64,000 nucleotides of DNA from Diphasiastrum complanatum (Eukaryota; Streptophyta; Lycopodiopsida; Lycopodiales; Lycopodiaceae): assembly GCA_029204225.1 (NCBI GenBank), contig CM055099.1, forward strand, positions 64,105,614 through 64,169,613, given 5' to 3'. Below are positions 5,747 through 23,300 of this stretch, one piece after another. The notes below the pieces were generated by a model that made no database searches, was not told the DNA's origin, and worked only from the letters and a program-made list of their open reading frames with translations. How positions within the stretch are numbered: position 1 is the first letter of the stretch; the number at the start of each line of letters is the position of its first letter. A program made the translations under genes and the position numbers.

Positions 5747-7313
5747 TTGGGTTATGGGGAGCCCCTTCCTCCCCATAACCTATTCTTTCAAACTTTGATT
5801 ATATGCATGAAAAAAGCTGTCATGTTGCATAGTTTTATTAATGGAACAGATCGTATCACCTGTAATGCTGCTAGACCGAACGACAAGGTTCTTTGTTTGG
5901 TTGACCTATTGGACACTGTACATTGGGTTAAAATTTACATGGACTACGGTAAGACCAAGACTGATCCCTTGGGTTTAATTGAAAACTTTGCTACTGAGTT
6001 GGTCGAGCTTGCTGAAAAATATTAAAGGGAAGAGAAATTTTATAATACTCATATCAGTTGTCTTGAGAAAGAAAACGACGTTCTTTCTGCTGATCACACT
6101 CCTGCCATTACTGATTCACCTCCGCCTGTACACCCTCTCATCTTTTAGACGATTTGGATGAGGATAGTGCCTCACAACTTGAAATTTTTTTCCAAGAAAT
6201 ATGTGATGTTGGTGATCTATCCACTTTTGAGTTCTACCAATCCAATAATTGCCAAGTCCTTTTTGTCCCTGCATGCACTATTGAGCTTAAGTCTGCCCGT
6301 ACTTCTTTTAAGCTTTGGAGCCTACCCACTGTCAATATTCTTGCTCCACTACCTATCGAACTTTGGATTATTCTTGCACATGTCACTGATAAAGAAGTAC
6401 AAACCTACAAACTAGTCGCCTTGAACAAAAACTCCATTCTTGAGACTCCCATTGTCTTTGATAATATCATACGTATGAACAAATTTGAGCCTTCTCGCTG
6501 TCCCTCTAAGCAAACCTGGGCACAAATTTGTGGACATTTTGACACCGGTTTCAATAGAATCAATCTCCACCAAGCTAGAATTTGAAACTGGAAAAGACCC
6601 TTCTTCAAATGTAGATGTGGCGACAAATGCAAAAATCAATCCTCCATTATTTGGTTTGACCATGCCATCTGGTATATTATGAATAACCTAAGAATTTTCT
6701 TTCCTGGGGCTTCTACGCATAACCAATTCAATGCATTTTTTCTTTGGCTTCACAAACCTACTAGGGAGGTTGTCAAAGCACACGTGACTTTTCTCTTTCT
6801 TCGCCAACACATGATAGATGCGTCCATTGAACTTGCTGCTAATCCTTCTGCCAAACTCCTTGCAAGTCTAGGCAATGCTGAAAACATTAAAGAAATCGAA
6901 GCTTTTTCACTTTGCAAGACAAATTCTTTCAAAACTTCAATAAAAAAACAAACACTTTTAACCTCAACAACCCAAGCTCTGTCATATCAAGTCAAGGTGG
7001 TGGTAAAAGAAGGAAATTTACAGGTTACAGAGGCAAAGAAGGGCAAGGAAGTGGTACAACGGAAGATTTGCCAATCAAGAAGCTGAATTTTTATAGGGAT
7101 TGATATGGGTGCAAGACAAAGAGGTTTTGCACAAGAGAGAAGTGATAAGGAATACGATGGATCGCCTGCAGCTCATTATGCATAATACCAAGGGAACTCT
7201 CTTTCTACATTTACTTTACCGCAATAGGATATTTGAGACCATTCATGTGAAGCAATTTAATGCTCGTATTTTATTACAGTTATTCGGCTTTATACATGAG
7301 TCATTCTACGATA
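5747..7313 (+). pseudogene. Penelope-like element copy A: ORF1 and start of ORF2
   Basis: Decayed ORF1 of a retroelement with three copies here. Blocks in three frames (5747-6025, 6154-6585, 6679-7103) align end to end with copy C: near the start CMKKAVMLHSF (copy C CMKKVVEVHKL), then FEPSRCPSK, a Cys cluster FKCRCGDKCKN at 6601-6636, and NAFFLWLHKPTREVV with LFLRQHMIDASIEL. It ends in FYRD and a stop at 7101-7103. ORF2 then begins; its first 70 residues contain GTLFLHLLYRNRIF and FYDI before the sequence breaks at about 7315 into an inverted RT segment. I recognise no nuclease or GIY-YIG motif in ORF1; its function is unknown. Nucleic-acid binding by the Cys cluster is inference. Confidence 0.65.
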
Positions 7314-8945
7314 TTATTTTACCGTTCTCGATTGAGCTTTGTCTAAGAAAAGTCCAATTGTATGATTATTGATAAAGCAAATGTCATCAATATATCTAAA
7401 TGAATATTTGAAATTATTCATAAATGAAATTTGCCCTGATCTTGCAAGCCTTTTAATAAATTGCATTTCAAAAAATAAAAGGTACCAGCTACACCACATT
7501 GGTGAGTAGGAAAAACCCATAGGTATTTCACGAACTTGTCTCCAGGTATGACCTCCAAGTCTGACAATGCAATTGTCTATCAAATAAGAGTTCCATTCGC
7601 ATAAGGCCTCCTTGTCTATACTATTCCATTCATCTGCTACAACATTTTTGGAGGACCATTTATGTGCAGAAAGTACAAAAAGGACCAAGAGTGGATCCTA
7701 ATCTGATCCTCAAGAGGGATTGGATATTGGATTTACTTGATCTATCAATCTACATAAGATTAAGATCAATCTAGATCAATTCTAGACATAAAATCCAAAC
7801 AAGAACAATCATTTATTGAAGGTAAATGTACTTGATGGTTTCACACGTGTGAAACCCTGTTAGGGTACGGACTCCAACCTGAAAATCAAGTACACATTGA
7901 TAGAACCTCAAAACAATCAAAACAAATGTAGACAAATGGAGAGAATCACTCAAAATTGCTTCCAAAACCAAGATTGGTGTCTCACATTGATTATGGCCAA
8001 ATGTGGCTCTATATATACAATAAGTGGGAGCTCGTGGTACTGATCATCCCTATGATCCCACATGTGTGAAGGTGCTTTGTCATATGATGATTCATCATGC
8101 AAAACTGACACTTGGACAAAACCTTCTATTTTGAGCACTTTTGGTCCATTTTCCTTCTATATGGAGATCTACTTGGAAATCTTCTAGAAGTCAAAATTCG
8201 CCTACTTCAGCTTATTCCACACATGTGAGCTGTCCTCTACACATGTGATATGACACCTAACCAAAGGATGTGGCTCATGCAATCAATAGATTGATGCCAT
8301 GTGTCATATGTCTAGAAAACTAGTTTTTGGCCTTTTTAGCCACTAGAACTTAAATAAATAATATGTACAACCTATATGATTATGGTACATGACAAGTACA
8401 CTATTTTCACACATGGGAACAGGCTCCACACATGTGTGTTTATCTATATACAAGATTTTTGGCCTCTACCAAGCTTATTTTTGCATTTTTCACAATTTAA
8501 AATTATTGGAACCCAGTATACGTCTATACTTAAGTACTTTAATTTTGGCAGTCTTAAAGGCCAAACTGATCATTTTTGTCATAATAGTTTTTAGACCGTC
8601 AGTTCTGTCCAGAGGAATATTTTGTAACATTTAGAAATATCGGTAGCTTTCATTGTATATATATGTCTTGGTAAGTTGAGATAGAAATTGACAGATAAAT
8701 CACATTGCCATAATAAAGAAGTATCCCCATTCAGGATGCTCTTGTATGTGTTTGCCTTAAGGCCTGTATCTTTCATAATAAAAGGATACAAGATACCAAG
8801 AGCACCTGTCAGTTTGGCGAGTCTAGAAAAACAGCAATCATGTGCATTTGTGATCCATCTAAAAGTCTCTTTGTGTGCTTTGTATGTGCATAGCAAGTAA
8901 GGTAATTCCCTAGAATATATGAAGTCATTAGGTAGTTCAGAAAAT
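7314..8945 (-). pseudogene. Penelope-like element copy A: inverted RT segment, split by a solo LTR
   Basis: Reverse transcriptase part of the same family, inverted relative to ORF1. Read on the minus strand from 8945: ELPYLLCTYKAHKETFRW, then ATDISKCYK (motif A with its Asp), a frameshift, GLKTIMTKMISLAFK, and after the solo LTR WSSKNVVADEWNS, IPMGFSYSPMWCSWYL (motif B) and FRYIDDICFINN (motif C, YIDD). It stops after FLDKAQ. Order and spacing match copy C. The YIDD box, the IPMG-SP motif and the KxHK segment are the pattern of Penelope-like RTs, especially the lineages with FRYIDD; exact clade unresolved. The pieces at 8495-8945 and 7314-7662 join in frame once the LTR and one TSD are removed. 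Confidence 0.75.
7663..8494. mobile_element. Solo LTR (832 bp) inside the Penelope-like RT
   Basis: Begins TGTGCAGAAAG and ends GCATTTTTCACA, with the 5-bp sequence ATTTA directly on both sides (7658-7662 and 8495-8499). Deleting it plus one ATTTA restores an in-frame RT: the minus strand then reads SNNFKWSSKNVV, matching QFDWKWVNNQ in copy C. The TG/CA ends, the TSD and the absence of coding sequence show an LTR left after LTR-LTR recombination. Its CACACGTGTG palindrome and its TTTTCACA end resemble the LTR at 16078-16724, so both may belong to one superfamily. Orientation is uncertain. Confidence 0.88.
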
Positions 8946-8949
8946 TCAC

Positions 8950-22636: not shown

Positions 22637-22749
22637 CTCTCTCTCTCTCTCTCTCTCTCTCTCTCTCTCTCTCTCTCTCTCTCTCTCTCTCTCTCTCTCT
22701 CTCTCTCTCTCTCTCTCTCTCTCTCTCTCTCTCTCTCTCTCTCTCTCTC
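22637..22749. repeat. (CT)n microsatellite after the RT of copy C
   Basis: Perfect CT run of about 113 bases, just after the end of RT similarity. Confidence 0.97.
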
Positions 22750-22754
22750 ATGGG

Positions 22755-23300
22755 CTCTATTACATACGTAAATTGCTTCATTAGCTTCACAAGCTTCTGT
22801 GGATTGCAAGTGTCTCGCACTAACCTTGTTTACTAATGGGGGCAAAAAAAATGTCTTACTATGTACCCCACATAATAAAAAAAAAAAATTCTAAAAAATG
22901 GTGGGAAAGTTGTGAATCTTTCAATGGCCAAAATCTGTGCACATTATGAACAGTCAATCTAACGGTGAACAACAATTTGCACTTAGTACACCTAAGTGTC
23001 CTCTAGTTCTATGAAGAGGGAAATCACACAACCCTATTCACTTTTTCTCATGTTTTCTTGCTCTCTCTCTCTCTCTCTCTCTCTCTCTCTCTCTCTCTCT
23101 CTCTCTCTCTCTCTCTCTCTCTCTCTCTCTCTCTCTCTCTCTCTCTCTCTCTCTCTCTCTCTCTCTCTCCTTCATTCTTGCTCTCCTGGTGCTCTACATA
23201 CTATGATTGTGACTGAAGAGAAAGCTCGTGAATGCTATTGGAAGAGCAATCGTGTGAACGATACTGCAAACAAAGGTGAGAATGATTTGAGGAATGGTAA
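22755..23300 (+). repeat. Penelope-like element 3' region (copy C)
   Basis: Matches 11205-11725 of copy B from AATTGCTTCATTAGCTTCAC to GAGGAATGGTA. It includes an A-rich stretch near 22873, a second CT run (23061-23169) and a conserved tail with GAAGAGAAAGCTCGTGAATG. Confidence 0.75.
23061..23169. repeat. (CT)n microsatellite in 3' region of copy C
   Basis: Perfect CT run of about 109 bases, positionally equivalent to 11484-11588. Confidence 0.97.

What the first reader, a model, noticed from the sequence alone, without database searches (positions are those of the whole stretch)
5747..23300. A Penelope-like retroelement family with a separate upstream ORF1, rebuilt from three broken copies
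Copies A (5747-8945), B (10128-11725) and C (13953-23300 minus the nested element) share an ORF1 of roughly 430-460 residues with a CRCGDKC cluster, an ORF2 with a Cys/His-rich N-terminus, and a YIDD reverse transcriptase of Penelope-like pattern. Known Penelope-like elements usually have one ORF and often a GIY-YIG nuclease; I see a second ORF and no GIY-YIG. This may be an undescribed plant lineage.
Basis: partly seen in the sequence, partly recalled or inferred. Interest (0 to 1): 0.78.

Follow-up and report, generated by a model that had tools for sequence, protein, structure and literature searches.

The report
Microsatellite-homing plant retroelement with two genes
This is an old, repeated plant retrotransposon with two genes and no recognisable DNA-cutting enzyme that tends to land inside CT-repeat tracts, apparently by matching a short CT repeat in its own RNA, much as some known retroelements attach to telomere repeats.

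Summary
The three broken copies are real but partly misread. Genome copies share one layout: (TC)n - repeat P - (TC)4 - ORF1 - ORF2/RT - (TC)n - P - (TC)n. ORF1 is a genuine gene (purifying selection) and ends at a stop in 14 of 14 junction rows; ORF2 follows in the -1 frame. No endonuclease domain was recognised. Two-ORF, endonuclease-less Penelope-like elements are already described, also in plants. RT phylogeny was not testable, so the family label is provisional. The new part is the target: 10 of 10 left ends that reach the P start, and 13 of 14 sampled right ends in unrelated flank, meet TC tracts. Of three insertions compared with uninterrupted copies of their target, two lie inside a pre-existing TC run with both flanks intact; the third does not. 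Likely mechanism (inferred): a (GA)n DNA end primes on the (UC)4 at the P/body junction, like the rotifer telomere elements but aimed at a microsatellite.

The parts
5569..5590 (+). copy A: repeat/body junction-like TCTCTAGCATT..AATGC
   Evidence: sequence compared by eye with junctions of other copies; hairpin kept with a C-G to T-A change
5632..7103 (+). copy A: ORF1 region, frame broken, stop TGA 7101-7103
   Evidence: about 67% DNA identity to genome copies; tblastn; stop
7104..7315 (+). copy A: start of ORF2 in the -1 frame
7317..7697 (-). copy A: inverted RT piece with YIDD
8594..8974 (-). copy A: inverted ORF2 middle piece
10122..10313 (+). copy B: ORF1 tail, stop TAA 10311-10313
10314..11193 (+). 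copy B: N-terminal part of ORF2, then cut off by copy C
11194..13819 (+). copy C: left terminal repeat (P), lacking about the first 10 bases; carries a (TC)52 at 11485-11588
13820..13830 (+). copy C: internal (TC)5 at the P/body junction, proposed priming site
   Evidence: the (TC)4 form of the pattern has 196 places in the genome at <=2 mismatches
13831..13900 (+). copy C: region matching the hairpins just after the P/body junction
   Evidence: fold of an L014-like junction string, z -4.1; alignment with a row from C
13954..15335 (+). copy C: ORF1, broken by frameshifts and stops
15335..16079 (+). copy C: ORF2, N-terminal and middle part (5' part deleted)
16077..21653 (-). Copia-like LTR element nested in ORF2 of copy C
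   Evidence: LTR pair 99.8% identical; Retrotran_gag_2 E 6.8e-21
21655..22614 (+). copy C: ORF2 RT half (IPMGF..SPTWCNWYL, FRYIDDICFIN)
22636..22749 (+). copy C: (TC)57 between ORF2 end and right repeat
22750..23299 (+). copy C: right terminal repeat (P), cut off at 23299
50334..51245 (-). 5'-truncated piece of a P repeat
   Evidence: 68-80% DNA identity

Best explanation
A multicopy, two-ORF retroelement of Penelope-like build without a recognised endonuclease, in a plant genome. Its RNA carries a (UC)4 tract at the junction between terminal repeat P and the body, beside RNA hairpins. A free (GA)n 3' end in a chromosomal (TC)n.(GA)n run anneals to that (UC)4, and the ORF2 reverse transcriptase copies upstream through P, (TC)n, ORF2 and ORF1 into the preceding P. 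When the cDNA again ends in (GA)n it joins the other side of the run through TC complementarity. This gives (TC)n-P-body-P-(TC)n with little or no loss of flank. ORF1 probably binds the RNA. Shown: layout, coding nature of ORF1, TC at nearly all ends examined, two of three insertions placed inside TC runs by empty-site comparison. Inferred: priming on (UC)4, tandem RNA template, the role of the hairpins, the role of ORF1, absence of a nuclease.
For: P repeats are direct in 7 of 20 loci (L011, L012, L013, L014, L017, L022, L026; L017/L022 look like duplicates), 85.6-95.0% identical within one element over the main segments, one 260-bp segment of L026 only 68.5%; window C 90.1%. Left ends: of 7 loci shown, 5 reach the P start and 2 are cut inside P; of 20 further stretches 5 reach it, 1 is cut inside P, 14 show no P. 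All 10 that reach it begin with (TC)33-89 against other flank. Right ends: exact 23-mer of the P end 348 places, 296 followed by at least four TC. Of the 100 listed places, 37 had (TC)>=12, 29 were internal, 34 unclassified. I read 8 of the 37 and 12 of the 34: 5 internal, 1 leading into another P, 14 in unrelated flank, 13 of those 14 beginning with 3.5-101 TC. Empty sites: for L014, 4 of 5 fetched LINE copies hold both flanks and a TC run of about 3-5 units at the junction, interrupted in L075; L073 and L076 look identical. For L011, 11 of 12 fetched copies of the host repeat show a TC tract of about 3-64 units between the two flanks of L011, six of them beside AT repeats; the 12th runs into (TC)125. 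L013 and L072 left flanks resemble the same repeat, 70-83% in the aligned parts. Background: (TC)>=13 0.013 and (TC)>=4 0.091 per strand-kb in 76.8 strand-kb of the window; in 14.1 kb of element flanks 0.142 and 0.213. The internal (TC)4 form has 196 places, the first 100 listed all exact, so long end tracts are not simply later expansion of it. Precedents: telomere-repeat pairing next to a ribozyme fold in Terminons (PMC6431247, passages); internal RT initiation near the pLTR-ORF junction in a Penelope-like element (PMC11167929, parts 1-2 of 4).
Against: The third empty-site test failed: all 4 uninterrupted Copia-like copies fetched for L061 lack a TC run at the junction; the nearest is a run of two to three TC about 30 bp on, and the right end of that insertion was not found. 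The L012 left flank also reads as Copia coding sequence (by eye; empty site not fetched). One of 14 right ends has no TC (L052), and six have only 3.5-9 units. The L014 target had a short TC run while both its ends now carry long tracts, so some TC was added at or after insertion. Window C, L017/L022 and L056 begin inside P without TC. The window P piece 50334-51245 meets (GA)n in its own orientation. In PAc the RT start is not homologous to the cut DNA (PMC11167929), unlike the model here. No hammerhead or other Rfam ribozyme was found. RNAalifold on 12 junctions predicts two helices, not the branched fold, with 1 of 21 pairs compensatory and a covariation term of +0.84. RT membership untested.
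Confidence: 0.6

Rival explanations
1. ORF2's N-terminal Cys-containing part or ORF1 holds an unrecognised nuclease that cuts TC runs, so this is ordinary target-primed insertion with a sequence-specific endonuclease, as in microsatellite-specific non-LTR elements.
For: Conserved Cys in both proteins; placement at TC runs. PMC4640811 (start of abstract in the listing): non-LTR elements with a restriction-like endonuclease target microsatellites.
Against: No nuclease family reaches its Pfam cut-off in the ORF1 and ORF2 pieces searched; only a sub-threshold NUMOD4 hit (E 0.18). A target-site duplication could not be judged inside TC.
Confidence: 0.2
2. The TC tracts come mostly from the element: the reverse transcriptase reiterates its (UC)4 template like telomerase, and targets need only one or two TC units.
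For: L061 target without TC at the junction and L012 flank in coding sequence; the L014 target had a short TC run but the element has 33 and more; right ends with 3.5-9 units.
Against: Eleven uninterrupted copies of the L011 host repeat carry TC tracts at the site without any element.
Confidence: 0.17
3. The RT is not Penelope-like but another early-branching RT class with tandem-repeat ends.
For: RVT_1 only below the curated cut-off (E 1.7e-5 to 1.5e-3); a shallow profile shows no similarity to host TERT, LINE or Copia RT; no PDB match for RT or ORF1 profiles, only weak unrelated hits for single sequences.
Against: Terminal repeats around the body, copies cut inside the 5' repeat and nested arrangement fit PLEs as described in PMC3846280 (passages) and PMC11167929 (parts 1-2); the RT motif pattern resembles PLEs as recalled.
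Confidence: 0.1

Closest known systems
Two-ORF endonuclease-deficient PLEs (Athena/Coprina type; EN(-) PLEs of Selaginella, Pinus, Picea)
   Same: RT ORF with a second ORF, no endonuclease domain, plant hosts known, attachment to simple repeats in the telomeric ones (PMC6431247, PMC9033089, passages)
   Different: Target here is TC runs along chromosomes, not telomeres; terminal repeats of about 1.7-2.6 kb; sequence relation not tested
Terminons of bdelloid rotifers
   Same: RNA carries a short copy of the target repeat beside a folded RNA (PMC6431247, passages)
   Different: Terminons pair with telomere repeats and have a hammerhead; here (UC)4 and no Rfam ribozyme
Penelope/Poseidon (PAc of Anolis)
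   Same: Tandem or partial tandem copies, terminal pseudo-repeats, RT starting inside the RNA near the repeat-ORF junction (PMC11167929, parts 1-2)
   Different: One ORF with GIY-YIG; [quoted passage not shown]
Microsatellite-specific non-LTR retrotransposons ((TC)n-specific Kibi: recalled, not read)
   Same: Target a dinucleotide repeat
   Different: These encode an endonuclease (recalled); RT class differs
Naiad/Chlamys PLEs (recalled; Craig 2021 not held)
   Same: Possible RT motif resemblance, recalled only
   Different: N-terminal GIY-YIG reported there (recalled); none recognised here

Membership tests
Penelope-like elements (order) | RT falls in the PLE clade, sister to telomerase RT | tested here: inconclusive
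   RVT_1 hit below cut-off; shallow-profile hhalign to host TERT, LINE and Copia gave no signal; no PLE reference available, no tree made
Penelope-like elements (order) | pseudo-LTRs, partial tandem or nested copies, 5' truncation | tested here: met
   direct terminal repeats in 7 of 20 loci; L017/L022, L056 and window C cut inside the left P; L043 shows P running into another P; C nested in B. Absence of P in 14 of 20 stretches may be truncation or only a shorter P
Canonical EN(+) PLE | GIY-YIG endonuclease in the same ORF | tested here: not met
   no GIY-YIG hit in the ORF1 and ORF2 pieces
EN(-) two-ORF PLE | two ORFs, no endonuclease domain | tested here: met
   definition from PMC6431247
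EN(-) two-ORF PLE | telomere association | tested here: not met
   ends at TC; two-unit telomere-type repeats: 0 in the 20 loci, 1 in the window; listed places spread along the contigs. Sample only
PLE with hammerhead ribozyme | hammerhead at the pLTR-body junction | tested here: not met
   Rfam: none in window, 4 loci or the L014 junction; a degenerate one is not excluded
Microsatellite-specific non-LTR element | insertion into a dinucleotide repeat | tested here: met
   2 of 3 empty-site comparisons
Microsatellite-specific non-LTR element | endonuclease domain (APE or RLE) | tested here: not met
Naiad/Chlamys PLE | N-terminal GIY-YIG, permuted order | tested here: not met
   no such domain in ORF1 or the ORF2 N-part; feature recalled

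The most novel reading that the evidence does not exclude
An endonuclease-less Penelope-like lineage that left telomeres, or never lived there, and homes into (TC)n microsatellites by base-pairing a (UC)4 tract of its own RNA, beside folded RNA, to (GA)n DNA ends, possibly extending the tract in a telomerase-like way; a non-telomeric counterpart of Terminons in a plant.
Probability: 0.5. Interest if true: 0.75.

Novelty: new variant of a known kind. Interest (0 to 1): 0.6.

Why it matters
How retroelements without an endonuclease find a place to insert is an open question, answered so far mainly for telomeres. An old, multicopy plant family that uses chromosomal TC runs through a matching repeat in its RNA would suggest that repeat-primed insertion is a general strategy, would make the PLE-telomerase link testable on a simple dinucleotide template, and could explain some of the TC tracts in this genome.

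Tried and rejected
Structure prediction of ORF1 (3 window rows) and ORF2 N-part gave mean pLDDT 34 and 37; no fold search was made on them. Relatives were sought in viral contigs and genome contigs: none confirmed. PDB by sequence: nothing of use. Reading the junction fold as a hammerhead was rejected: the core did not fit by eye and Rfam found nothing. The Rfam P37 hit at the ORF2 end (28.5 bits against a cut-off of 50) was taken as chance. The region 4016-5640 as left repeat of copy A is inconclusive (score 49 against a shuffle mean of 39, maximum 60; 4 of 15 sub-windows above their 20 shuffles). A canonical -1 frameshift from ORF1 into ORF2 looks unlikely in the main subfamily, because the ORF2 frame has a stop 4 nt before the ORF1 stop. 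hhalign against host TERT, LINE and Copia failed for lack of depth. The query orf1n_C was cut one frame off (9 stops), so its hits show DNA similarity only and are not used as protein evidence.
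Full report
Source. The window is one stretch of a 1.745 Gb assembly with 5176 contigs. Contigs C1 to C23 are very large (46-102 Mb where a length was printed), and C24 reaches at least 7.2 Mb. A Copia-like gag in the window and a telomerase RNA-binding domain match in the genome (E 1.0e-32) fit a plant that keeps telomerase.

What is in the window. Pfam finds an RT in copy C (RVT_1, E 3.5e-4, below the curated cut-off) and nothing meaningful in the other element pieces (AWS E 0.25). Mapping ORF1 and ORF2 pieces shows: A, ORF1 on the plus strand with stops and frameshifts, then inverted RT and ORF2-middle pieces; B, ORF1 tail plus ORF2 N-part, broken off at 11193; C, ORF1, ORF2 cut by a Copia-like element, and RT. 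Self-comparison shows that 11195-11721 and 22760-23299 are 90.1% identical: they are the left and right terminal repeats of C, so C was inserted into B. The rest of B's ORF2 was not found in the window.

Genome copies. The RT of C has 128 matches at E<=0.001 (some being pieces of one copy), most of the long ones 56-84% identical. Twenty loci of 9.9 kb were read; L010/L015, L017/L022 and L025/L027 look like near-identical duplicates, so about 17 are independent. The copies complete enough give one layout: P repeat, body with ORF1 and ORF2, P repeat. The two P of one element are 85.6-95.0% identical over the main segments, with one segment of L026 at 68.5%, so none of the seven loci with both is a young insertion. 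P looks mostly non-coding: in four copies the longest open stretch is 157 aa, though a minus-strand frame of 74-157 aa is shared by three of the four; it was not searched further.

ORF1 and ORF2. In comparisons of copy A with the others, differences pile up at third codon positions. Where dS could be estimated (it is high, 1.2-3.1 for ORF1), dN/dS is 0.05-0.18 for the middle and C-terminal parts of ORF1 and 0.10-0.30 for ORF2-middle (many comparisons have saturated dS and give no ratio; the ORF1 N-part was not tested). So ORF1 was a working gene, and by dN more conserved than the RT (0.12-0.32 against 0.32-0.43). In 14 of 14 junction rows ORF1 ends at the same place. ORF2 is open in the -1 frame from about that stop; the main-subfamily rows have no ATG in its first 40 codons, while copy A has one about 20 codons in. 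Reinitiation, splicing or frameshift is suggested and not resolved. No domain reaches its cut-off in ORF1 or the ORF2 N-part (best NUMOD4 E 0.18, Tle3_C E 0.027).

Ends. In five of seven loci shown the left P begins with (TC)n straight against other sequence (in the other two P is cut), and the right P begins with the same kind of tract just after ORF2. The right P ends in ..CTTGTTAC(TC)n or a close variant; the same sequence at the P/body junction has (TC)4 before AGCATC in the intact ones. The genome holds 196 such junctions at <=2 mismatches, 451 P ends with (TC)>=12 at <=3 mismatches, and 348 exact P-end 23-mers, of which 296 run into TC. Twenty ends were read from two classes (8 of 37 with long TC, 12 of 34 unclassified): 5 internal junctions, 1 leading into another P, 14 in unrelated flank, 13 of them with TC. 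Twenty stretches 2.0-2.7 kb upstream of junctions gave 5 complete left ends, all with (TC)57-89; 1 was cut inside P and 14 showed no P, which may mean truncation or only a shorter P. Background TC tracts are rare.

Empty sites. Three insertions were compared with uninterrupted copies of the sequence they lie in. L014 lies in a LINE: of five other copies fetched four hold both flanks with a short TC run at the junction, and the fifth, L077, has a long TC tract followed by unrelated sequence. L011 lies in a high-copy repeat: of 12 other copies fetched, 11 have its two flanks joined by a TC tract, six beside AT repeats. L013 and L072 have a similar left flank. Against this, L061 sits in Copia-like sequence whose four fetched copies have no TC at the junction, and the L012 flank reads as Copia coding sequence.

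RNA. A composite of the ORF2 end folds into a long hairpin over the stop codon (z -5.7), and an L014-like junction string into a branched fold enclosing the (UC)4 (z -4.1). RNAalifold on 12 junctions supports two helices only, with 1 of 21 pairs compensatory and an unfavourable covariation term. Copy A shows one more C-G to T-A change by eye. No Rfam family matches the junction.

Mechanism. At the sampled right ends that have a tract, TC lies on the element strand, which fits a (GA)n primer annealing to (UC)4 and copying upstream. Internal initiation near the pLTR-ORF junction is known for a Penelope-like element, though not by homology to the target (PMC11167929, parts 1-2 read), and use of target-complementary repeats beside a fold is known for Terminons (PMC6431247, passages). 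Joining of the cDNA through TC at the left would explain why complete left ends start in TC and why the flanks of L011 and L014 are intact. These steps are inference.

Novelty. Two ORFs without endonuclease is a described layout (PMC6431247; PMC9033089 for plants). A dinucleotide-repeat target for such an element was not seen in the listings of nine searches of the held library; subscription papers, Craig 2021 among them, could not be read, so the claim is limited.

Noticed in passing
16077-21653: Copia-like element nested in copy C with LTRs 99.8% identical, so a recent insertion into an old one.
   Followed up: partly
23300-24500: Right repeat of C stops at 23299; sequence beyond resembles an LTR element start, with TTGGTATCAGAGC at about 23661 (primer-binding-site-like, recalled).
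   Followed up: no
50334-51351: Reversed, 5'-truncated P piece that meets a (TC)n on the plus strand, i.e. (GA)n in its own orientation: an exception to the orientation rule.
   Followed up: no
3886-4015: Long (TC)65 tract upstream of copy A, possibly its left end; homology of the stretch between to P could not be shown.
   Followed up: partly
L077 170-300: A LINE copy of the L014 target family carries a long TC tract at the same site followed by unrelated sequence.
   Followed up: no
L018 2650-7780: Two element copies of different subfamilies in tandem.
   Followed up: no
L014 1957-2104 (minus): Hairpin overlapping the ORF2 stop codon, broken in window copy C by loss of one arm.
   Followed up: partly
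L012 3506-5725, also L011 and L014 right repeats: A minus-strand open frame of 74-157 aa shared by three of four P repeats.
   Followed up: no
56990-57544: Open frame that resembles a plant LUL/LOG2-type RING ligase N-terminus (recalled; Pfam gave nothing).
   Followed up: no
L095 1129-2943: Host telomerase RNA-binding exon with an open frame; the host seems to keep telomerase.
   Followed up: partly
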